Source of the DNA: Anaerolineae bacterium
GTDB lineage: Bacteria > Chloroflexota > Anaerolineae > DRVO01
DNA length: 55,860 bases
Reading direction: 5' to 3'
Assembly: GCA_013178015.1 (NCBI GenBank)
Contig: JABLXR010000039.1
Coordinates: forward strand, 1-55,860
Of this stretch, positions 2,910-15,598 are shown piece by piece (within the stretch, counting starts at the first letter, position 1; the number at the start of each line of letters is the position of its first letter). A program made the position numbers and the translations under genes. Below the pieces are notes generated by a model. The model had not been told where the DNA came from. It ran no database searches and saw only the letters and a program-made list of their open reading frames with translations.

Positions 2910-2938
2910 TTGACATAGGTGAGGGGACGGGGTATACT
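2910..2938 (+). promoter_or_regulatory. promoter of the tRNA-fMet / tRNA-Met pair
   Basis: TTGACA at 2910-2915 and TATACT at 2933-2938 with a 17-bp spacer. The first tRNA begins at 2950. No second promoter is evident before the tRNA at 3066, so both are probably on one transcript. Confidence 0.85.
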
Positions 2939-2949
2939 GGAAAGTGCGT

Positions 2950-3021
2950 CGCGGGGTAGAGCAGTGGCAGCTCGTCGGGCTCATAACCCGGAGGTCGTTG
3001 GTTCGAATCCAACCCCCGCTA
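2950..3021 (+). tRNA. initiator tRNA-Met (CAT)
   Basis: Acceptor strand CGCGGGG (2950-2956) pairs with CCCCGC, leaving C1 opposite T72, the unpaired first position typical of bacterial initiators. The anticodon stem has three consecutive G-C pairs (GGG/CCC) around loop CTCATAA, the other initiator hallmark. The T arm GTTGGTTCGAATCCAAC is canonical. The discriminator is A (3021), and the next bases are CCT, so CCA is not fully encoded. The C1:U72 mismatch differs from the more familiar C1:A72. Confidence 0.95.
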
Positions 3022-3065
3022 CCTGGAACTCAAGGGAGATGGCTGTTGCCATCTCCCTTGCTGAT

Positions 3066-3137
3066 GGCGACGTAGCTCAGCGGCAGAGCAGGGGACTCAT
3101 AAGCCCTTGGTCACTGGTTCAAATCCAGTCGTCGCCA
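3066..3137 (+). tRNA. elongator tRNA-Met (CAT), islet target site
   Basis: GGCGACG (3066-3072) pairs perfectly with CGTCGCC (3130-3136), with discriminator A at 3137 and no encoded CCA. The D arm is GCTC/GAGC and the T arm ACTGG/CCAGT. The anticodon loop is CTCATAA (CAT) on a GGGGA/GCCCT stem that has a G-U and an apparent A31-G39 mismatch. A tRNA-Ile with CAT anticodon (lysidine-modified) is the alternative reading. Bases 3075-3140 are repeated exactly at 5964-6029. Confidence 0.9.
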
Positions 3138-3140
3138 CTG
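3075..3140 (+). repeat. 66-bp direct repeat, copy 1 (within intact tRNA-Met)
   Basis: Runs from the tRNA D-stem GCTC through the 3' end and three bases beyond (ACTG). It is identical over all 66 bp to 5964-6029, and sequences outside the repeat differ on both sides. This is the geometry of attachment-site duplication at a tRNA gene. Confidence 0.9.
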
Positions 3141-3493
3141 TGCTGCAACCTGTTGTATGTGCTGGAAGGGCGTTCAGCTGCTGGTAGTGGCGGAGGCCCT
3201 TGCTTCCCCTCTCCGCAGTAGTGACCAACGGATTCGGTCTCCTCAACCCGAGCAACCTGCGGCGATACGTTGACACCTTGATCCTCGATCGTAGCGCTCG
3301 CGATGGAGACCTCCACTCTGCAGAAGCTCATGGGTGATGCGGGCCTCACCGTGCTTCGTGGGCACCCGGCTTGGGCAAAGGAGGACTTGCAGGCGACTCA
3401 TGAGCGCACCAGTCCGTAGGCTGCTTCTTGTAGGGAGGGAGAGCCACCCGTTGCGATGCGGCTCTGACGACCCCGCCTGAGCCAGTCCTTCTG
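3141..3493. other. gene-free stretch inside the islet
   Basis: No open frame with coding character or ribosome binding site was seen. Translations across the tRNAs into this segment are artefacts. Confidence 0.5.
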
Positions 3494-3901
3494 CTAGTAG
3501 AAGCGCCTCTTAGGCGGTGTATCGGCAGGATCTGGACGTGGCTCCCTGGGTGGCATGTCTGAGGAGCGTGGCTGGATCAGCTTGAGCCACTCACCCATGG
3601 GCGGCTGCACTCGCACCTCATCTCCCACTGCCCGTATGGTGCCGTCTTCCTCCTCGCGAGCCGGAGCTGGTACGGCCATGACATCATCCCGCGTCATTGC
3701 TATGTAAGGGTCCTTGGCCATGGCTGACAGGTCCCCTCCTTCTTGTGGGAGGTACGTAAGCTGGCCGGGCCGTAGCCGCCCGTCCAGTCGGTGTGTGCGT
3801 TTGGGAGCGATCTGAGAAGCATACTGCAGTTGGGCTTCGGTCACGTGGACGTCGGTATGATGCCCAGTAGCCCCATCCATCGTCCAGCCGGCGGCGTTCA
3901 T
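3494..3901 (-). CDS. hypothetical protein, doubtful (possible gene remnant)
   Basis: A 135-codon minus-strand frame with fairly protein-like composition: an acidic/hydrophobic middle (D-P-Y-I-A-M-T-R-D-D-V-M-A-V), a G-T-I-R-A-V-G-D-E-V-R-V segment, and a proline/arginine-rich tail ending P-P-K-R-R-F-Y. There is no clear Shine-Dalgarno before the ATG and I recognise no family. It sits inside the tRNA-bounded islet and could be the C-terminal remnant of a larger element gene. Confidence 0.3.
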   Translation of the reverse strand: MNAAGWTMDGATGHHTDVHVTEAQLQYASQIAPKRTHRLDGRLRPGQLTYLPQEGGDLSAMAKDPYIAMTRDDVMAVPAPAREEEDGTIRAVGDEVRVQPPMGEWLKLIQPRSSDMPPREPRPDPADTPPKRRFY

Positions 3902-4609
3902 GGTTCGAGCAGCGGCCTCAGATTGCCCTAGCCCGCAGATCTCGCCACGACGTAGGCGACTTGCTCATCTCTGGCCCGCTTGAGGCGTCGTTGATGAAGG
4001 AGCCGATTCCTCATGGTGCCCATGCAGCCGAAAAACTGCACCTCCGGCGGGGGATCTTGACGATGGATCCAGCTAGATATCAGTCTCCATTTCACCAGGC
4101 TGCCGAGGATGCGAACGAGGGCACACATGGCGCCTTCTGTGCTGAGTGGGGCGGTCGCCGGCGGAGTCACAGATCTGGAGTGCCGTGCCTGGATGGCGCT
4201 CTCAAGACTGGGCTTGGGGCATGGTGTCTGCATGTAGCATGGCATGCGGGCGCGCCCTGCTAGCGCCCAAGAGATCCTGAACTCGGTGCCCCGTGGGTCA
4301 CTTGCCAGCTACGCGTGGCCCACGGACATCCAGCAGTCCAGGTTGGTGTAGCGCAAGCGTGAGACGTGCGTCCGCACAGAAGGCCCTGCCCCGGCAAGAG
4401 GAGTCGGCTCCGTACGAGAGGCACCATGATCCACTTGCTCCTCCTCTGTGTCATGCCGCAGTCAGCCCTCTGCTTGTCGTCAATCAGTGCGGGCGTTTCA
4501 TTGCTCTGGTTACTCGGTCTCGCAGACTGAGGATGCCTTGACTCCGAGCGCTGCGAAACTAGGCTACACGATCGCGCGTCACGAGAGCCAGACGACGAAT
4601 GGAGGTAAC
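3902..4609. other. gene-poor stretch upstream of the DUF4268 gene
   Basis: Only short overlapping frames on both strands, none with a recognisable domain or good start signal. It may hold decayed element DNA and the promoter of the next gene. I could not define a promoter. Confidence 0.4.
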
Positions 4610-5557
4610 ATGCAGACACTTGGCCACCTCAAGAGAGTCGAACCCAGGTCAGTGTGGCAGCATGAGGCCCGTGACCTGACGCCCTGGTTACGGGACAATA
4701 TTGAGATTCTGGCGGAAGCAGTGGGCCTGGAATTGGACCTGGCAGAGAGCGAATCTCAGGTAGGCGACTACTTCGTTGATCTCTGTGCGAGAGATCTGAG
4801 CACCGGGAGACCGGTCATCATCGAGAACCAGCTGGAACCGACTGATCATAACCATCTGGGCCAGCTCATGGCCTATGCTGCTGGAAAGGAGGCGAGTGTA
4901 GTCATCTGGATCTCGCCCAGAATCCGAGATGAGCACCGCAGAACGCTGGATTGGCTGAACGAGATAACTGGCGAGGAGATATCCTTCTTTGGCATCGAAC
5001 TGCAGCTGTTTCAGATTGACGATTCCTTACCGGCACCTCACTTCAGCCTAGTGGCTCAACCCAACCAATGGCAGAAGGCGGTCGCTGCTGCGTCAGGGGG
5101 TCGGACATCAGAACGACAGCAGGCCTATGAAGCCTTCTTCACAGACGTATTGGAAAGGGCGAAGAAGGAGTGCCCCGGCCTCACGAAAGCCAGGAGAGCA
5201 TACCCTCAGAGCTGGTTGACGTTTCCAACTGGCCGTTCGGGGTTCAGCATAGCGGCGGCCTTTGGCCAGCAAGGGATCTTCCGCGTTGAGCTGTACATAG
5301 ACGTGGGGGTCAAGAATCAGAACAAAGCAGCCTTTGATTCGCTACATGAAGACAAGGGGAGCATCGAGCAGCAGATCGGGCGCGAGGTGATCTGGCAACG
5401 ACTAGATGACAGGCGGGCGTCACGTATCTACTCTGCCGTCCCAGGGGCGATTGATGATGAGGCCGCTCACCTTGAGCACCTGAAAGGCTGGGCGGTGGAG
5501 ACGGTAGCCCTCTATCGCCAAGTCTTTGGGCCGCGCGTGCAACAACTGGTTCTGTAG
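4610..5557 (+). CDS. DUF4268 domain protein, nuclease-like N-terminus
   Basis: The 315-residue protein has two parts. Residues about 1-150 resemble the restriction-endonuclease-like fold often seen in this family: W-L-R-D-N-I-E-I-L-A-E-A, then VGDYFVDLCARD, then VIIENQLEPTDHNHLGQL, with D and E-N-Q placed like a variant PD-(D/E)xK core. Residues about 165-310 match a DUF4268 domain (FFTDVLERAKKECPG, FRVELYIDVG, and a final helix L-K-G-W-A-V-E-T-V-A-L-Y). I start at ATG 4610 because GGAGGT is at 4601-4606; the frame continues upstream without a better site. Base composition looks less GC-rich than flanking genes, which fits transfer. It is the only clear cargo of the islet; a defence role is inference. 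Confidence 0.75.
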   Translation: MQTLGHLKRVEPRSVWQHEARDLTPWLRDNIEILAEAVGLELDLAESESQVGDYFVDLCARDLSTGRPVIIENQLEPTDHNHLGQLMAYAAGKEASVVIWISPRIRDEHRRTLDWLNEITGEEISFFGIELQLFQIDDSLPAPHFSLVAQPNQWQKAVAAASGGRTSERQQAYEAFFTDVLERAKKECPGLTKARRAYPQSWLTFPTGRSGFSIAAAFGQQGIFRVELYIDVGVKNQNKAAFDSLHEDKGSIEQQIGREVIWQRLDDRRASRIYSAVPGAIDDEAAHLEHLKGWAVETVALYRQVFGPRVQQLVL

Positions 5558-5963
5558 CAGAAACCAGACGGTGGTCGAGCCCCGCCCCTTGCCCTATGCA
5601 GGGCCAGGTGTCGACCCGAGCCAGCCTACCTCCTGGCGGCGAGAAGGGCTGCCACTCCTCCCAGTCTATGGACAGACTGGCACGGCGCTGCGCGCTCGAA
5701 ACCGGGCTCGGGCCTACGCCGCTGTCACAACACCTGAACACTGCTGTCATCCTTTCGCCGCCAGCGCGTTCTGCGTGCTACCGCCGGTGACGGTGGCCTT
5801 CCCGTGAACCCGTCTTCGGCCATATCCTGGCACTCCAGCCATCGCCACAACAATGCGCAAGGTGGTGGGCGATAGCAGTGTGAGCGTGGTTGTTCCGGTG
5901 ATACTGTTAGTCCTGGTCTGGCGGCTCCAGCTTGCTGGGGGTCGTACTGGCACGCCCGGTCTG
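5558..5963. other. gene-free stretch at the right end of the islet
   Basis: No convincing coding frame, tRNA or terminator was seen between the DUF4268 stop and the distal repeat. Confidence 0.5.
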
Positions 5964-6029
5964 GCTCAGCGGCAGAGCAGGGGACTCATAAGCCCTTGGT
6001 CACTGGTTCAAATCCAGTCGTCGCCACTG
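5964..6029 (+). pseudogene. tRNA-Met 3' fragment (direct repeat copy 2)
   Basis: This 66-bp copy matches 3075-3140 exactly and contains the D stem, anticodon arm (CAT), T arm and 3' acceptor strand of tRNA-Met. The first nine tRNA bases are missing: the preceding CCCGGTCTG cannot pair with CGTCGCC. It therefore cannot fold as a tRNA and is best read as the displaced old 3' end at the far junction of the islet. Confidence 0.85.
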
Positions 6030-6045
6030 CCAAGATACGTTCCTC

Positions 6046-6075
6046 GCCCCCGCCGACCGGCGGGGGCTTCACTTC
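6046..6075 (+). terminator. hairpin terminator, probably the original tRNA terminator
   Basis: GCCCCCGCCG (6046-6055) pairs perfectly with CGGCGGGGGC (6058-6067), followed by the T-containing tail TTCACTTC. It sits 16 bp past the tRNA-Met 3' fragment, where a tRNA terminator belongs, while the intact tRNA at 3066 has no hairpin after it. Confidence 0.6.
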
Positions 6076-7155
6076 AATGGCCCAGCCCGAGTGTCCTGAG
6101 CTCCCTCCGTATGCTGTCCCGCCCGATCGAACACGGACGGTGCCAGCGACCTGCAGCCAACGTGCGGACAGAGGTACGGGCCTCCCTCTGGAGAAGACTA
6201 TCAGGCACATGCCGATATGTCTTGCTCTGTCGCCCTCGGGCATCGGGCAGTAGGCCACCATTAGTGAGCGGCAGCAGACCATGTGCTTGCAGTCGGGCGG
6301 GCGGTTGGCCTCCTTGTCCTGATGGTCACTGGGTGATGGGTTATTGCTCCCGAGGACGGGCCGGCAGCAGGCCGCTCCGGATGCCGCATGGACGAGGCGG
6401 GGCGGTGACACCCAGCAATACTGCCGCCGGAGGCACTCGCTGGATGCCTCAGCACCGCCGCCGGGCAGAACGGCGGTGTGTCGGCAGGGCGAGAGAAGCA
6501 CCCACTGGGACAGAGGCGCACCTGAGAAGACGCGATCTCGCCGGCTGGAGCGAACGGTTAGCGCTGTCGCCTCCGCGATGGAGCTCGGGCGCGAGGAGCC
6601 AAGTGTGTCCGGGTGGCAGTCGCACAGGGCAGATGCGCGCAAGTGGTCTGCTCGCCGGCTGTGAGGGCAGGCTCTTGGGCCGGCCACAAGGGCAAGGCGC
6701 TAGCATCCTGGCAGGTTCCGGCTTCCCCCTGAGGGGTCCGCGCCCCCGGGCGTGGCAGGCACTTGGGGGGAGGGCGCGCGCACTCCTCGTATGATAGGCG
6801 GTAGAGATGGCCGACGGAGACCTGCTCGGATGGAAGGTGCATCAGGGGGGCGGCTGTCGCACGTGGCCATCTCCAAGGTGGGCCCGTGCACACCTCGACA
6901 GAAGGTGTACCTAAGGTGTGGTCGTCGATGGCTCGCCTAGCCCGAGCGCAGCGAAGGCCCTGAGCAGCGGCGCCGGCTGGCATCTGTTCCCCTGGTCCTG
7001 AGCCGCTACGCCTGCGGCCGCGGTAGCCGTTCCCGCACCGGTGGAGTACACTCTGGCTCGCTTGCCGAGGGGAGAATGTCGGCTAGCGGCGGCTACAAGA
7101 GGCACCGGCCGGGCAGCGGCATAATCGCCGGCGTACGGGTGCGGAGGAGGACGAC
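6076..7155. other. long gene-free stretch
   Basis: About 1.1 kb with only GC-driven overlapping frames, including one from 5853 to 6794 that begins by reading through the tRNA fragment. No domain, RNA gene or convincing start signal was found. It may be degraded DNA next to the islet. Confidence 0.5.
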
Positions 7156-9604: not shown

Positions 9605-9793
9605 TTCCGGCTACGTTAGAGGCCGAGCCCACCGCGACCGATCAGCGTTCGCTCCGCAGGTTGGGGCCTTGCGGCTCGTCCTGTGTGCCCATCGCCGGGC
9701 GCCTCTGACCGTTTGTCGGCCGCGTGGGTCCTGGAGACTGAGACATGGCATCGCCGCGGCAGCCCGGTTCTGACCATTAGGACGGAGGTCATC

Positions 9794-10153
9794 ATGGCTT
9801 CAGAAGCAGAACACGATAACGGTCGTGCTCGTCTCGAAGAGGAACGTCGGGATCTTCTAGACGAAATTCAACGACTGCGGACGCTCCTGAAGACCGAGAC
9901 GGACGCCTCTACGCAGGAAGGAGACCCCGACGTATGGGAGCATGAGCGAACGCTCGCGTTTCTAGAGGTGGCCGAGTCGCGTCTAGAAGCGGTCGAGCGG
10001 GCGCTGCGCATGGTGGAGACGGGCACTTACGGCACCTGCGAGCGATGTGGCGCGCAGATAGAGAAGGAACGGCTGCAGGCCCTGCCCGATGCCACTCTGT
10101 GCTTGAGGTGTCAGCGGGAGGTGGAACGTCTGTCAAGCCGGTCGCGGCGGTAG
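9794..10153 (+). CDS. TraR/DksA family zinc-finger protein
   Basis: The 119-residue protein has an N-terminal helical hairpin (about residues 10-73, rich in E/R/L) and a C-terminal four-cysteine zinc finger: C82-E-R-C85 and C103-L-R-C106, with the family's G-T-Y-G-x-C and A-x-P-x-A-x-x-C spacing. DksA proteins bind RNA polymerase through the secondary channel and modulate initiation, often with ppGpp. The acidic hairpin tip here reads T-E-T-D-A-S-T rather than the classical DxxDxA. I chose ATG 9794 because ACGGAGGTC precedes it by 4 bp and the upstream frame is non-conserved. It is apparently monocistronic. Confidence 0.88.
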   Translation: MASEAEHDNGRARLEEERRDLLDEIQRLRTLLKTETDASTQEGDPDVWEHERTLAFLEVAESRLEAVERALRMVETGTYGTCERCGAQIEKERLQALPDATLCLRCQREVERLSSRSRR

Positions 10154-10252
10154 CCGGAAGCGGGCAGTTCCCTGAGGTGGCGGCGTGCCCAGGCCGGCGG
10201 CCTTCGGGGTAGCCGGTTGACGGCACGCCGGGCCGGTCCTAGCATACTTCGC

Positions 10253-13000
10253 ATGCGTCTTCGCCTCCCGTGGTTGGTGCGGTACGATCCTTTCTGGGGG
10301 GTGGTGGTCGTTCTCCTCGGCGCCGCGCTGGGCGTGTCCTCTTTGGTCGTCACGCCGGGGCTGCCCAACACGGCCGATGGGCCGCTTCACCTGTTCCGGG
10401 CGTTGGAGCTCCGCTGGGCCTGGGAACAGGGAGTGCTCTACCCCCGATGGGCCCCACATTTCGCCTACGGCCTGGGCTATCCCATTTTCAACTACGTGCC
10501 GCCTCTCCTGGGATTCCTCACCGCTGGCCTGGGGCTTACAGACGTGGCGATGCAGGATGCCCTCAAGCTCGTGGCAGCGGGAGCAGTGGCCGCGGGCGGC
10601 CTGGGGACTTACCTGCTGGCCCGCAGGTTTCTGTCTCCCACCGCTGCCGCTGTCGCCGGCTTGGCCTACTGCCTGACTCCCTACCGGCTATTCGAGCTCT
10701 ACATCCAGGGCAACTATCCTCAGCTGCTTAGCACCGGTATCGCTCCCTTCTGCCTCTGGGGCCTGGCTAGGCTGAGCGCTCGTGGGGACAGGGTGGGGTT
10801 CCTCGCTCTCGCCCTCGCCATCGCCGCCATCACCGTCGCTCACAACATCAGCGTGGTGATGTTCGCACCGCTACTTGCCTGCTACGGATTGTGGCGCGTG
10901 TGGCGCCGGCGGAGTCAGCGTGTGGTGCCCATGGCGCTGGCGGTGCTGGGCGGGGTGCTGGTGGGTGCGTTCTTCTGGCTGCCAGCGCTCGCCGAAAGCA
11001 GCTACGTGCAGACCTGGCGCCTGACTCGGCATTTCTTCGACTTCCGGCAGCACTTTCTCAGTCTGGAAGAGCTGTTTGCCTTCCCCCAGGAGTTGGACTT
11101 CCGAGCCTCGAACCCCTACTTCCCCTTCAGCCTGGGCGGGCACCTGGTATTGCTGGCCCTGCCCTCCCTAGCCTGGCTTGGGCGTCAGCATGGGGAGCCC
11201 GCCCGCTTGCCGGGGAGCGGTGAGGCAGGCCGCGATGGGGCGGCGAGCGGCAGTCGACCCGAGGACGGAGTCCGCGGGCACGTGGTTTTCATGTGGTCTG
11301 CACTGCTGGGCTACGTCTGGCTCATGCTGCCCGCTTCGCAGATGGTCTGGTCCTCGGTCCCGCTTCTGGGGTACATCGAGTTCCCCCACCGGCTCCTGGG
11401 ACCGGCCTCGCTACCGCTAGCCCTCCTGGTGGGGGCGGCAGTGGAGGCGTGGGGACGCCCTGGCAGCCTGTGGGGCCGCGGGTTCTGGGGCGCAGCGGTG
11501 GTGGTAGTGCTTGTGGGGGCTGCCCCCTACGCCTTCCCCCGCAAGCCCTTTCTGGACTGGAGTGGATATCGGGCCGAGGACGTAACTGACTTCGAGATGC
11601 GGACCGGGGCCATCGGTACTACCAGCGCCGCCGAGTATACGCCCCGATGGGCCACGGAACGGCCCACGCCCGAGGTCGCGGCGGACGCGCGACGAAAGGT
11701 CACCGTGCTCGACACCGGGCCGACGTGGGCTCGGGTGCAGGTGACCGCAGAGCGTCCGGGCCCGGTCGTGCTCCCGTTCCTCTACTTCCCCGGCTGGCAG
11801 GGTCACGCGGACGATGGTCCCGTGGCGGTGTCGCCGGGAGAACTGCACGGTCTGGTAGAGATCAGCCTTCCTTCAGCTGGGGTTCAGGACGTGGAACTGG
11901 TGCTGCGGCAGACTTCTCTCCAGCGCCAGTCGTGGTGGGCCAGCCTGGCAGGTCTGGGGCTGGTGGCCCTGGGTACCCTGTCGGTCCGCAGCCGGGTAGG
12001 ATCACCGGAGGGGGATCGGACGGCGACTGAGCCCTGGCTACGCTTGTCCGCAGCGGCCCTGGGGCTGCTGGTGGTGGCCAAGGTGGCCTACCTGGAGCCG
12101 CACACCATGCTCTTCCGGCTGCAATCGCCCCCTGGCACCGTTCTCAGGACGCAACACCCTCTGGAGGTGATCTTCGCCGGCAGGATCGCGCTGCTGGGGT
12201 ACGATCTGGAACGCAGTCTGCCCCCTCAAGGCGAACCCCTGAGTGTGGTCCTATACTGGCAACCGTTGGGCGGGCTGGCCGAGGACTACCATGTCTTTGT
12301 GCACCTGGTGTCGTTGGCAGACGGGCAGGTCGTGGTGCGGTCGGAGAAGGCGGCCCCGGGAGGGGTGCCCAGCAGCAAGTGGCATCCGGCGCTGTACGTG
12401 GAGGACCGGCATCGGCTGCCTTTGCCCCAGGACCTGCTGCCGGTGCGCTACGCTCTTCGGGTCGGCCTCTACGACCCGCGGGCCGAGGCGGAGCTGGTCG
12501 GCCCGGGCGGTGAGACATCCGTTGTGCTCCAGGAGGTGCAGGTGCTCTACAACCGGCCCCTGGACATACGGCGGTTTCCCGGGAAGGAGTGGTTTGGCTT
12601 CGGAGAGAAGGTGCGTCTCCTCGGGTTCGACCTGGACCGGACCGAGCTGGCGGCCGGCCAGTCGGCCGAGCTCACCCTATACTGGCGCGCTGAGGCTCGC
12701 GTCAGCGAGCGTCTGAAGCGCTTCGTGCACCTGGTGAATGGCTCGGGCACCATTGTGGCCCAGTGGGACGAATGGCCCGTAGCAGGAGCGTATCCCACCG
12801 ACCTGTGGCTGCCCCAGCACAACATAGCCGATCCGGTGACGGTGACGGTGCCGGCGTCGGCCGGCCCGGGCGAGTACACCCTGGTGGTAGGGCTGTACGA
12901 TGCCGAGAGTTTGACTCGGCCGGAGGTCCGCCGACGGGGGACAGAGAGGGTGCCGGGGGATGCCGTGGTGCTGCCGCTGGTGGTCCGAGTGTTAGGCTGA
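10253..13000 (+). CDS. PTPS-related polytopic membrane protein (GT-C-like) with duplicated C-terminal beta domains
   Basis: A 915-residue membrane protein of the '6-pyruvoyl-tetrahydropterin synthase-related' family, which despite its name resembles GT-C glycosyltransferases. Conserved marks include the acidic loop T-A-D-G-P-L-H-L-F-R after the first helix, Y-G-L-G-Y-P-I-F-N-Y-V-P, and about ten transmembrane segments to residue ~590. The C-terminal third holds two related soluble repeats: L-L-G-Y-D-L-E-R-S ... Y-W-Q ... F-V-H-L-V, then L-L-G-F-D-L-D-R-T ... Y-W-R ... F-V-H-L-V, each ending L-R/V-V-G-L-Y-D. I prefer ATG 10253; TTG 10217 is an alternative, and neither has a good ribosome site. 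The role is probably in surface glycan assembly (inference). Confidence 0.8.
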   Translation: MRLRLPWLVRYDPFWGVVVVLLGAALGVSSLVVTPGLPNTADGPLHLFRALELRWAWEQGVLYPRWAPHFAYGLGYPIFNYVPPLLGFLTAGLGLTDVAMQDALKLVAAGAVAAGGLGTYLLARRFLSPTAAAVAGLAYCLTPYRLFELYIQGNYPQLLSTGIAPFCLWGLARLSARGDRVGFLALALAIAAITVAHNISVVMFAPLLACYGLWRVWRRRSQRVVPMALAVLGGVLVGAFFWLPALAESSYVQTWRLTRHFFDFRQHFLSLEELFAFPQELDFRASNPYFPFSLGGHLVLLALPSLAWLGRQHGEPARLPGSGEAGRDGAASGSRPEDGVRGHVVFMWSALLGYVWLMLPASQMVWSSVPLLGYIEFPHRLLGPASLPLALLVGAAVEAWGRPGSLWGRGFWGAAVVVVLVGAAPYAFPRKPFLDWSGYRAEDVTDFEMRTGAIGTTSAAEYTPRWATERPTPEVAADARRKVTVLDTGPTWARVQVTAERPGPVVLPFLYFPGWQGHADDGPVAVSPGELHGLVEISLPSAGVQDVELVLRQTSLQRQSWWASLAGLGLVALGTLSVRSRVGSPEGDRTATEPWLRLSAAALGLLVVAKVAYLEPHTMLFRLQSPPGTVLRTQHPLEVIFAGRIALLGYDLERSLPPQGEPLSVVLYWQPLGGLAEDYHVFVHLVSLADGQVVVRSEKAAPGGVPSSKWHPALYVEDRHRLPLPQDLLPVRYALRVGLYDPRAEAELVGPGGETSVVLQEVQVLYNRPLDIRRFPGKEWFGFGEKVRLLGFDLDRTELAAGQSAELTLYWRAEARVSERLKRFVHLVNGSGTIVAQWDEWPVAGAYPTDLWLPQHNIADPVTVTVPASAGPGEYTLVVGLYDAESLTRPEVRRRGTERVPGDAVVLPLVVRVLG

Positions 13001-13101
13001 AGCCCCGCTTGTAAGTAGCAGCGTGTAGGCTCGGTGTCGAGGTGGAGAGGGCGGTGGCTTCTGCGGCGGTACGTGCCCTAAGCGGGCTGTTCGACGCCGC
13101 C

Positions 13102-14340
13102 TTACAGACCCAGGGAGGTCAACCCGGCAGGTACCTTGTCCTCCGACCAGGACCGCTGCACCCCTTCGTCCTGGGTCGCGGCTGAGAGCCAGGTGTCGAG
13201 GGCGGCGGCTCTGGCTTGCTGCAGCTCGGCCTCCTCAAGGGGGCGATCATCGTCCTTGTCTACCACCTCCAGAACGTGCAGCCCCATGTAGGAGGAGACG
13301 ACCTCGCGCTCGCCCGGGGCGAGCTCAAAGGCTCGCTCCAATACGGTGGCGGGCAAAGCGCTGGACGATGCGGTGAGCCAGCCCAGTTCGCCCCCACTTT
13401 CCTTGCTCGGGTCCTGGGATAGCTCCTGGGCCAGGGCGGCGAAGTCCTCGCCTGCCTCCAGGCGGGCCAGAACCTCATCGGCTTCCTCCTGGCTGAACAC
13501 TACGATGTGCCGCACGTTCACCTGGGGCGCGCTGGTCGGCACCTCGGCCGCGAGGGCCTCCTGCAGCTTCTCTCGGAGGAGATAGGCCTTCATCAAGTCC
13601 AAGAAGGCCGCCTCGGTCATGCCCGTCCGGTCCTGCACGTACTTCAGATACTCCTGGCGCAGCTCTTGATAGGCCTCGAGGGTCATGGGGGTGGGTGTGG
13701 GCGACGGCGTAGCGGTGGGCTCGGGCGTGGCCTCCGGTGTAGGCTCGGCGTTGGGCTCGGGCGTGGACTCCGGTGTAGGCTCGGCGGTAGCCTCTTCCGC
13801 CGCCTGGGTGGCCTGGGGCTCGGTGGTGGGAGTAGGGTCAGGGTGGGGATCGTAGCCGAACCACTCCTGGACCCATTCCTCCAGCTCGTCGGGAGAGACG
13901 CTGAGCCCGCGGCGTTCTGCTTCCTGGCGCACCAGCTCGTCCTCGATCATGCTCTCCAGGACCTGCCTAGGCAGGGCGCTGGCGGAGGACTGCAGGCTCT
14001 CGATTTGCTGCTGGAGAATGTCACGCAGGATGGGGGTGCTCTCGTCTTCCGGGTCGAGCCGCAAGAGCTGGGCGCGCATCGTCTCGATCCGGTTGGCCAG
14101 ATTGAGGCCCTGATAGAGCACCATGGTCTGGTACTGCCGGGTGCTGATCGGGGTGCCGTGTACCACCGCTACCGGTTCTCTGGGCAGGGCCACACCCACT
14201 CGGTAGATTCCGATCGCTAAGATCAGCACGACGATGGAGGCCAGGACAGCCAGGCCCATCCGTACCTGCCGGTCGCGGGCCCTCGTCTCTGGCGGGATGG
14301 CCGGCACCCGGCGGGCCGGTGTTTGACGCTTCCTGCTCAT
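13102..14340 (-). CDS. SurA/PrsA-like peptidyl-prolyl isomerase (parvulin), membrane-anchored
   Basis: Extracytoplasmic folding factor. After a basic N-terminus there is one transmembrane helix (about residues 28-50), a SurA-type N-terminal chaperone region with V-V-H-G-T-P-I-S-T-R-Q-Y and S-M-I-E-D-E-L-V-R-Q-E-A-E-R-R-G, and a Pro/Thr/Glu low-complexity linker (about 165-218). A parvulin domain follows: V-N-V-R-H-I-V-V-F-S, F-A-A-L-A-Q-E-L-S-Q-D-P-S, G-G-E-L-G-W-L. The P/T/E linker inside the chaperone region is unusual for the family. ATG 14340 has GAGG six bases upstream; the frame is open to 14379. It follows rpsF-ssb-rpsR on the same strand after about 70 bp and may be co-transcribed. 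Confidence 0.86.
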   Translation of the reverse strand: MSRKRQTPARRVPAIPPETRARDRQVRMGLAVLASIVVLILAIGIYRVGVALPREPVAVVHGTPISTRQYQTMVLYQGLNLANRIETMRAQLLRLDPEDESTPILRDILQQQIESLQSSASALPRQVLESMIEDELVRQEAERRGLSVSPDELEEWVQEWFGYDPHPDPTPTTEPQATQAAEEATAEPTPESTPEPNAEPTPEATPEPTATPSPTPTPMTLEAYQELRQEYLKYVQDRTGMTEAAFLDLMKAYLLREKLQEALAAEVPTSAPQVNVRHIVVFSQEEADEVLARLEAGEDFAALAQELSQDPSKESGGELGWLTASSSALPATVLERAFELAPGEREVVSSYMGLHVLEVVDKDDDRPLEEAELQQARAAALDTWLSAATQDEGVQRSWSEDKVPAGLTSLGL

Positions 14341-14411
14341 GGGTTCCCTCATGAAGAGCAGGGCATAGGGAGCCCCCATGCCCTGCTGATGCAGTCTATA
14401 CGTAAGAGAGC

Positions 14412-14753
14412 CTACGAGGTGAAACGATGCCCGTAAGCGTAAGGCATCAGGGCCAGGTGCCGGGCGCGCTTGATGGCACGAGAGAGCTGGTGCTGGTGCC
14501 TGGCGCAGGTGCCCGTCTGCCGGCGGCCCCTGATCTTCCCCTGATCGGTGACGTAGCGCTGTAGTGTCTCGATATCTTTGTAGTCAATCTGCTTCACTTT
14601 GTCCACGCAGAAGGCGCACACGCGCCGGCGTGGGAAATAGCGTCGCTGGGGGCGGCCACGTCGCTCGGTCGAGCGCGCTTCGTCCCGCCCGGAACGTGAC
14701 TCCTCCCTGGTAGACTCCCGAGCCTCGGCCCGGTCGCCGTTGTCCTCTGCCAA
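14412..14753 (-). CDS. rpsR: 30S ribosomal protein S18
   Basis: S18 binds near the platform of the small subunit with S6. The conserved core is present at residues about 40-110: R-R-x-C-A-F-C, [22 protein letters not shown], and [15 protein letters not shown] charged Glu/Arg/Ser-rich N-terminal extension of about 35 residues precedes it. The start codon is TTG at 14753, supported by GGAGGG inside the end of ssb with about 8-nt spacing; there is no ATG before the core. It overlaps no gene and follows ssb by 2 bp. Confidence 0.95.
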
Positions 14754-14755
14754 TG

Positions 14756-15139
14756 CTAATCCCTCCAGTGATACTCGTACTCATAGCGGCCGTCGGCCCC
14801 TGGGGAGGCATCGCGTCCCAGGACTGCGGCCCTCTCGGCGATTATCTCGGTGCGGGCCATCTGGCGGCCGAGGGCATCCCGCCAGACGTGGTTCCTCAAG
14901 CGCCCTTCGAGGTAGATGTATGTGCCGACATCGAGGTCGTCGGCACAGAACTCCGCCAATTCGCGCCAGGCAACCACGTTGAACCAGTCTACTTCCTTGT
15001 GGGCGCGGGAATTGACGGGGACGCACGTTCGCGACACGGCGATGGTGAAGACGGCCACTGCGCTGCCTTCCGGTGTGTAGCGCAGTTCCGGCTTCTCCAC
15101 TACCTCACCCATGAGGGTGACCCGGTTGAGGCCCAGCAT
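14756..15139 (-). CDS. ssb: single-stranded DNA-binding protein
   Basis: A 127-residue OB-fold protein that coats single-stranded DNA during replication and repair. Motifs include [42 protein letters not shown], and [10 protein letters not shown]. It lacks the acidic D-D-I-P-F-type tail of canonical SSB and ends Y-E-Y-H-W-R-D instead, so the usual partner-binding tip is altered or another ssb exists. ATG 15139 is preceded by GAGGAGA; the longer frame to 15265 overlaps rpsF and is not needed. It is the middle gene of the classical rpsF-ssb-rpsR operon. Confidence 0.93.
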
Positions 15140-15170
15140 CTTCGTCTCCTCGGAGAACCTGCTCACGCGA

Positions 15171-15479
15171 TCAGCCGGATGGCGGCGCCGGCACATCCTC
15201 AGCCGACAGCACCAGGTACCGCAGGACGTCTTCGTTGAGGCGGAGCATTCGCTGCAAGTCCTCAATGGCGTCGGGCGGGAGTCGCAGCCGCATCGTGGTG
15301 TAGAAGCCAGCGGTGTGCTTGCGAATGGGGTAAGCCAAGCGCCTGCGGCCCCAGTCCAGCGTGCCGATCAGCTCACCCCCTGCGCCGGTGATGTAGTCGG
15401 TGACGCGCTCTCTGAGGGAGGCAAGCTGGTCCTCATCGACGCTGGGCTGGATGACAAAGGTTAACTCGTATTCGGCCAT
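15171..15479 (-). CDS. rpsF: 30S ribosomal protein S6
   Basis: The 102-residue protein starts M-A-E-Y-E-L-T-F-V-I-Q-P-S-V-D-E and contains G-R-R-R-L-A-Y-P-I-R-K-H-T-A-G-F-Y and L-R-L-N-E-D-V-L-R-Y-L-V, all typical S6 segments. S6 pairs with S18 on the 30S platform. ATG 15479 has AAAGGAG just upstream. It is the first gene of the rpsF-ssb-rpsR operon, with a promoter about 90 bp upstream. Confidence 0.96.
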   Translation of the reverse strand: MAEYELTFVIQPSVDEDQLASLRERVTDYITGAGGELIGTLDWGRRRLAYPIRKHTAGFYTTMRLRLPPDAIEDLQRMLRLNEDVLRYLVLSAEDVPAPPSG

Positions 15480-15568
15480 GGCGGCTCCTTTCCCTGGGAT
15501 TGCCCTCGGACACCGCCGAGAGCGGAAAGTGTAGGGCAGTGTTCTCTACACAATCAGTGAACAACTCG

Positions 15569-15598
15569 ACTATAGCATGTACGTTTGCGGCCTGGCAA
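15569..15598 (-). promoter_or_regulatory. promoter of the rpsF operon
   Basis: On the minus strand TTGCCA (15598-15593) and TATAGT (15574-15569) are separated by 18 bp. The predicted transcript starts near 15562 and would have a leader of about 80 nt before rpsF, a place where S6:S18 autoregulation can act in other bacteria. I did not identify the known S6:S18 motif here. Confidence 0.6.

What the first reader, a model, noticed from the sequence alone, without database searches (positions are those of the whole stretch)
3075..6029. 66-bp tRNA-Met repeat bounds a gene-poor islet with a single clear cargo gene
An intact tRNA-Met at one end, an exact 66-bp copy of its 3' part at the other, and a hairpin terminator stranded just beyond the distal copy point to insertion into the tRNA gene with tRNA repair. 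The only clear gene inside is a DUF4268 nuclease-like protein; no integrase is visible. A minimal element without recombinase that uses tRNA-Met is unusual, although decay or trans-mobilisation could explain it.
Basis: partly seen in the sequence, partly recalled or inferred. Interest (0 to 1): 0.68.

Follow-up and report, generated by a model that had tools for sequence, protein, structure and literature searches.

The report
Recombinase-less defence islet in tRNA-Met gene
A 2.9-kb piece of foreign DNA has inserted itself into a tRNA gene and carries one intact gene, a probable anti-phage nuclease, but no enzyme to move itself; this is a known kind of element, although the same gene turns up in similar small tRNA-bounded units in unrelated ocean bacteria.

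Summary
In detail: an intact elongator tRNA-Met (3066-3138), an exact 66-bp copy of its 3' part 2,889 bp away (5964-6029), and the tRNA operon's terminator stranded beyond the distal copy (6046-6067). It is not a local duplication. In 12 of 13 readable relatives the terminator follows tRNA-Met directly. In a distant relative (G019) the same tRNA-Met carries the same repeat (65 bp, same right edge, left edge 1 nt off) with a tyrosine recombinase directly downstream of the tRNA. A one-contig relative (G350) has tRNA-Met, a recombinase and a 44-bp 3'-half copy about 31 kb away. The islet is therefore an att-flanked integrative element at an established tRNA-Met site. It lacks a recombinase and was probably inserted recently, because the non-functional copy is still 66/66 identical. 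Its one clear gene is intact and matches PADLOC candidate defence family PDC-S11 full length (E 1e-109); its predicted N-terminal fold is an EndoMS/NucS-type nuclease. In SAR11, 6 of 8 readable homologues sit in short tRNA/tmRNA-bounded units without a detected integrase. I cannot tell whether the islet arrived without a recombinase or lost it. Cargo-only tRNA cassettes are described, so this is a new member of a known kind.

The parts
2910..2938 (+). sigma-70-like promoter of the tRNA-fMet / tRNA-Met unit
   Evidence: consensus scan, 11 of 12 matches
2950..3023 (+). tRNA-fMet (upstream partner in the tRNA pair)
   Evidence: ARAGORN; same order in relatives
3066..3138 (+). intact elongator tRNA-Met, the integration target
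   Evidence: ARAGORN, Rfam 67.6 bits
3075..3140 (+). proximal 66-bp repeat (attL), tRNA positions 10-75
3141..5963 (.). islet interior, no DNA match in 59 relatives, phages or plasmids (one 31-nt stretch in G001 aside)
3497..3952 (-). 152-codon open frame, weak coding signal, no credible homologue; possibly a gene remnant
4601..4606 (+). GGAGGT ribosome-binding site before ATG 4610
   Evidence: sequence
4610..5557 (+). DUF4268 / PDC-S11 protein, 315 aa, predicted PD-(D/E)XK nuclease, candidate anti-phage gene
   Evidence: Pfam E 2.9e-22; PADLOC PDC-S11 E 9.8e-110; fold; conserved residues kept
5964..6029 (+). distal 66-bp repeat (attR), displaced tRNA-Met 3' part without its 5' acceptor strand
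6046..6067 (+). hairpin terminator of the tRNA unit, displaced 2.9 kb from tRNA-Met
   Evidence: relatives have it directly after tRNA-Met

Best explanation
The islet is a small integrative element, or what is left of one, that entered the elongator tRNA-Met gene by site-specific recombination between the chromosomal tRNA-Met (attB) and a roughly 65-bp tRNA-Met-like site on the element (attP). The product is attL (the repaired tRNA, 3066-3140), 2.8 kb of element DNA, and attR (the displaced 3' part, 5964-6029) followed by the operon's own terminator. A tRNA-Met-specific tyrosine recombinase, of the kind found beside tRNA-Met elsewhere in this class, most likely did the work. None is encoded here, so the islet is now non-autonomous: it either came in with help in trans or lost its recombinase by deletion soon after. 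Selection has kept one cargo gene, a DUF4268 (PDC-S11) protein that probably cuts phage or other foreign DNA with its N-terminal nuclease domain. Shown: repeat, terminator displacement, matching site with recombinase in relatives, absence of recombinase, intact cargo gene, nuclease fold by prediction. Inferred: mechanism of entry, recent age, defence function.
For: Exact 66-bp repeat coinciding with the tRNA. tRNA-fMet, tRNA-Met, terminator in immediate succession in relatives: 12 of 13 with readable flank have a hairpin of -16 to -28 kcal/mol within 75 nt. The native upstream flank is 96% identical to the same-genus genome and window 9781-15579 is collinear with one contig of it, while the islet is absent from all relatives. 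G019: intact tRNA-Met, then 70 nt on a tyrosine recombinase (PF02899 E 5.6e-7), and on another contig a 65-bp 3' copy followed by a terminator. G350: tRNA-Met, recombinase, 44-bp copy about 31 kb away on one contig. DUF4268 is the last gene before an 18-bp tRNA-Arg attR in an integrase-bearing element (L158) and lies next to the end of an archaeal provirus. PDC-S11 match; EndoMS/NucS fold, Z 11.5; DUF4268 is known as a domain partner of GmrSD type IV restriction enzymes (PMC4619093). Foreign composition: DUF4268 GC 0.57 and GC3 0.64 against about 0.65 and 0.8.
Against: No empty site of the same species and no read-level support; one metagenome assembly. No closely related recombinase in this genome (best own match E 3.7e-5). 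About 1.9 kb of the islet has no recognisable origin. The element ends of G019 show no obvious similarity to those of this islet, and the G019 halves are on separate contigs. The T-tail of the distal terminator is weak. Defence activity is untested.
Confidence: 0.82

Rival explanations
1. Decay in place (a sub-version of the best explanation): an autonomous element carrying a recombinase inserted in tRNA-Met and then shrank by deletion, leaving only the defence gene and debris.
For: The stretch next to the tRNA, where the recombinase of G019 and of integrase-bearing elements sits, is 1.4 kb of nearly non-coding DNA with an ORF fragment. Integrase-bearing elements with DUF4268 at the far end exist.
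Against: The distal copy is non-functional yet 66/66 identical although syntenic DNA of the same genus is only 68-76% identical, so there was little time for slow decay. No recombinase remnant was recognised.
Confidence: 0.42
2. Trans-mobilised cargo-only cassette (the other sub-version): the islet arrived without a recombinase and was inserted by an enzyme supplied by another element or phage, as may happen in additive flexible genomic islands.
For: Six of eight SAR11 DUF4268 loci lie in 1.3-7.3-kb tRNA/tmRNA-bounded units or tandem arrays without a detected integrase. Recent insertion inferred from identical repeats.
Against: No helper with the right specificity is seen in this genome. SAR11 is a different group of bacteria and its cassettes need not move the same way.
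Confidence: 0.42
3. Homologous recombination: imported DNA carrying a tRNA-Met 3' copy was captured through the tRNA homology, without a site-specific enzyme.
For: 66 bp of identity could serve as a recombination arm; cassette exchange around tRNAs in streamlined plankton has been described (PMC7771536).
Against: 66 bp is short for this, and G019 has the same boundaries together with a recombinase.
Confidence: 0.1
4. [quoted passage not shown]
For: Only one assembly exists and the repeat is shorter than assembler word sizes often used.
Against: The duplicated part is exactly the tRNA-Met 3' part, matches the repeat limits of G019, and the terminator sits only at the distal copy.
Confidence: 0.05

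Closest known systems
Cis-mobilizable element (CIME), the recombinase-less att-flanked relative of ICEs and IMEs
   Same: attL and attR, tRNA site, cargo, no recombinase or transfer gene recognised
   Different: No parental ICE/IME identified here; mobilisation not shown; only 2.9 kb
Gene cassettes of additive flexible genomic islands (Ca. Actinomarinales, PMC7771536; Ca. Methylopumilus, PMC10872708)
   Different: Single cassette, not an array; 66-bp repeat instead of about 20 bp in Methylopumilus; not a streamlined planktonic genome (4.6 Mb)
Tycheposons (Prochlorococcus; described for Methylophilaceae in PMC10872708)
   Same: tRNA-bounded cargo element, tRNA-Met among the sites
   Different: Tycheposons are described with a tyrosine recombinase and as 4-200 kb; neither holds here
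PDC-S11 phage-defence candidate (PADLOC-DB 2.0)
   Same: Full-length profile match
   Different: Family is predicted by genomic embedding, not shown to act against phage

Membership tests
tRNA-integrated element | Direct repeat of the 3' part of a tRNA gene at the far end, intact tRNA at the near end | tested here: met
tRNA-integrated element | Native downstream sequence displaced by the insert | tested here: met
   terminator after the distal copy only; order in relatives
tRNA-integrated element | Empty site in a close relative | tested here: inconclusive
   G001 contig ends 1 nt after tRNA-Met; only distant relatives show the uninterrupted order
tRNA-integrated element (autonomous) | Recombinase gene inside | tested here: not met
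CIME | att-flanked, no recombinase and no transfer genes | tested here: met
CIME | Mobilised in cis or trans by a related element | not testable with these tools
   needs junction reads or an experiment
Additive fGI cassette | Cassette at a tRNA ending in a partial tRNA repeat | tested here: met
   description in PMC7771536
Additive fGI cassette | Variable content between strains at the same site | not testable with these tools
   one genome of the species; G019 has a different element at the same site
Tycheposon | Tyrosine recombinase and 4-200 kb size | tested here: not met
   2.9 kb, no recombinase; features from PMC10872708
PDC-S11 | Full-length match to the family profile | tested here: met
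   residues 1-312 of 315 to profile 1-314 of 318, E 9.8e-110
PDC-S11 | Anti-phage activity | not tested
   needs an experiment
EndoMS/NucS | C-terminal nuclease domain fold | tested here: met
   Z 11.5, rmsd 2.4 over 107 residues, model 14-142 to 5gke 128-240
EndoMS/NucS | Domain of about 125 residues ahead of the nuclease domain | tested here: not met
   nuclease fold starts at residue 14; the C-terminal half is a different, DUF4268, domain

The most novel reading that the evidence does not exclude
DUF4268/PDC-S11 genes are habitual cargo of a distinct class of minimal, recombinase-less mobile defence units that use tRNA and tmRNA genes as docking sites and are moved entirely in trans, across phyla; this islet and the SAR11 units would be independent examples.
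Probability: 0.2. Interest if true: 0.65.

Novelty: new member of a known kind. Interest (0 to 1): 0.4.

Why it matters
It gives a clean, small example of how a single defence gene can be held at a tRNA site with no mobility gene of its own, and it names both a plausible type of helper (the tRNA-Met tyrosine recombinases of this class) and a comparison set (SAR11 DUF4268 units). That makes the question of trans-mobilised defence cassettes testable with two or three constructs. For this window alone the result is ordinary.

Tried and rejected
Islet DNA against 59 relatives, phages and plasmids: nothing useful. Viral contigs with DUF4268 and with the 152-aa frame: nothing. The one match of the 152-aa frame (G109, 36%) crosses a stop next to an rsmG-like gene and is rejected as chance. 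DUF4268 beside tRNA-Gly in one genus (L082-L086, L100-L108): no partial tRNA copy, constant spacing, 5' side of the tRNA, so a vertical locus and not an islet. NCBIfam has no model; PHROG 27742 has no function. No solved relative by sequence. VIA matches of the C-terminal half to secretion chaperones (Z about 8 or less) are taken as a common arrangement only. G052 and G023 partial tRNA-Met pieces were not resolvable from the contigs.

Full report
Observation. The window carries tRNA-Leu, tRNA-fMet (2950-3023) and elongator tRNA-Met (3066-3138) in a row. A 66-bp stretch, 3075-3140, recurs without a mismatch at 5964-6029. It spans tRNA positions 10-75, that is everything from the D-arm to two bases beyond the tRNA end called by ARAGORN; the distal copy has lost the 5' acceptor strand and is scored by Rfam as a truncated tRNA. 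Of 46 tRNA matches in the whole genome, the distal copy is one of two that cover the model only in part.

Insertion, not duplication. In relatives the tRNA-fMet / tRNA-Met pair is followed at once by a terminator hairpin. Of 13 relatives with readable sequence, 12 have a hairpin of -16 to -28 kcal/mol within 75 nt; the exception is G002 (-10.6). In the window the proximal copy has only -8.0, whereas the distal copy has -23.0. The hairpin is 6046-6067; its T-tail is weak, and 6 of 60 shuffles reached -15 kcal/mol or stronger. A promoter-like site at 2910-2938 precedes the pair. The order promoter, fMet, Met, terminator is therefore interrupted by 2,889 bp. The upstream flank is 96% identical to the same-genus genome G001 and window 9781-15579 is collinear with one G001 contig, so both flanks are native; the islet is absent from every relative searched apart from one 31-nt stretch in G001. 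The same-species empty site could not be seen because the G001 contig stops 1 nt after tRNA-Met.

The site is an established one in this class. In G019 (another family) tRNA-Met is followed after 70 nt by a tyrosine recombinase that runs off the contig (Phage_int_SAM_1, E 5.6e-7). Another G019 contig holds a 65-bp copy of the same tRNA part, preceded by unrelated sequence and followed by a terminator and a conserved operon. Its right edge is identical to that of the window repeat and its left edge differs by one base. In G350, a one-contig genome, tRNA-Met is followed by a related recombinase and a 44-bp perfect copy of positions 30-73 lies about 31 kb away. Relatives of the G019 recombinase lie beside tRNA genes in most of the loci fetched, tRNA-Met in five of them counting G019. 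Two recombinases also lie beside tRNA-fMet (L314, L317).

No recombinase here. The genome has 10 tyrosine-recombinase places, none on this contig, and only one weak match (E 3.7e-5) to the G019 enzyme. The tRNA-proximal 1.4 kb, where the enzyme should be, has little coding signal; one frame (3497-3952, minus) has a modest signal and no credible homologue.

Cargo. The gene at 4610-5557 is intact, has a good ribosome-binding site and a composition foreign to the genome (GC 0.57, GC3 0.64). It matches Pfam DUF4268 and, over its full length, PADLOC PDC-S11 with E 9.8e-110. PDC families are phage-defence candidates found by genomic embedding; in a panel of 100 P. aeruginosa strains 90% of the 10 carriers of PDC-S11 were resistant strains (PMC10855318), a correlation only. 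DUF4268 domains also occur in GmrSD type IV restriction enzymes (PMC4619093). The structure prediction is confident (mean pLDDT 92.9). Residues 14-143 match the nuclease domain of EndoMS/NucS (Z 11.5), and the residues E48, D57, E72 and N73 are invariant among 36 diverse homologues, Q74 nearly so.

Age. The distal copy cannot make a tRNA and should drift, but it is 66/66 identical, while syntenic DNA of the same genus is 68-76% identical. Unless gene conversion keeps the copies alike, the insertion is young. This argues mildly against slow loss of the recombinase in place, but not against a quick deletion.

Is the arrangement recurrent? DUF4268 homologues are spread over many phyla. Among 43 non-SAR11 loci with at least 5 kb on each side, one is bracketed by a tRNA and its partial copy, and that one has an integrase (L158). 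In SAR11 it is different: only 9 of 397 genomes have the gene, but in 6 of 8 readable loci it lies between a tRNA or tmRNA gene and a partial copy of it (tRNA-Thr, -Gly, -Leu, tmRNA), against 16% of all bases in the same stretches. The smallest (L223) is 1.3 kb with DUF4268 alone; L167 and L226 are tandem arrays, L167 with a type III restriction system next door. The tRNA break points examined lie at the anticodon arm. No integrase was recognised among the unit genes scanned against Pfam; not every ORF was scanned. Two genomes share an identical DUF4268 protein at tRNA-Thr with different second genes (L193, L221).

Known or new. Cassettes inserted at tRNAs and ending in partial tRNA repeats are described for marine Actinomarinales (PMC7771536) and freshwater Methylopumilus (PMC10872708), and recombinase-less att-flanked elements are known as CIMEs (from general knowledge; not compared with a reference set here). 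The window islet is a new member of that kind. The repeated use of DUF4268 as cargo of such units is, as far as the searched papers show, not described, but the literature held is partial.

Limits. One assembly, no reads; taxon of the window not named by the tools; SAR11 genomes partly single-cell assemblies; defence function and mobility untested.

Noticed in passing
window 6581-7015: A degenerate copy of an interspersed repeat family (about 320 bp or more, terminal inverted repeat AGCTCAGGATCGGGGG, internal tandem unit of about 66 bp in some copies) with 13 or more copies elsewhere in this genome and none detected in 20 relatives; looks like a MITE.
   Followed up: partly
L223 9211-10529; L225 9365-11293; L222 8343-11754; L226 7758-13277; L221 9348-11513; L167 3107-10417: SAR11 tRNA- and tmRNA-bounded cassettes with DUF4268 and no detected integrase, two of them tandem arrays.
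   Followed up: partly
L242 4108-4739 and L241 412-473 (G019): Two halves of a recombinase-bearing element in the same elongator tRNA-Met, on separate contigs.
   Followed up: partly
L310 1204-1831 and G350:C1 about 871514-871557: About 31-kb element between tRNA-Met plus recombinase and a 44-bp tRNA-Met 3'-half copy; contents not read.
   Followed up: no
L314 3838-4529 and L317 2266-2956: Tyrosine recombinase directly downstream of initiator tRNA-fMet in two genomes.
   Followed up: no
L129 13674-14621: DUF4268 gene next to the end of an Archaeoglobus pleomorphic provirus, opposite its integrase.
   Followed up: no
L147 10001-11083 and L181 5484-6539: DUF4268 lies 20-35 bp upstream of tRNA-SeC in two metagenome records titled Chloroflexi and Dehalococcoidia.
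   Followed up: no
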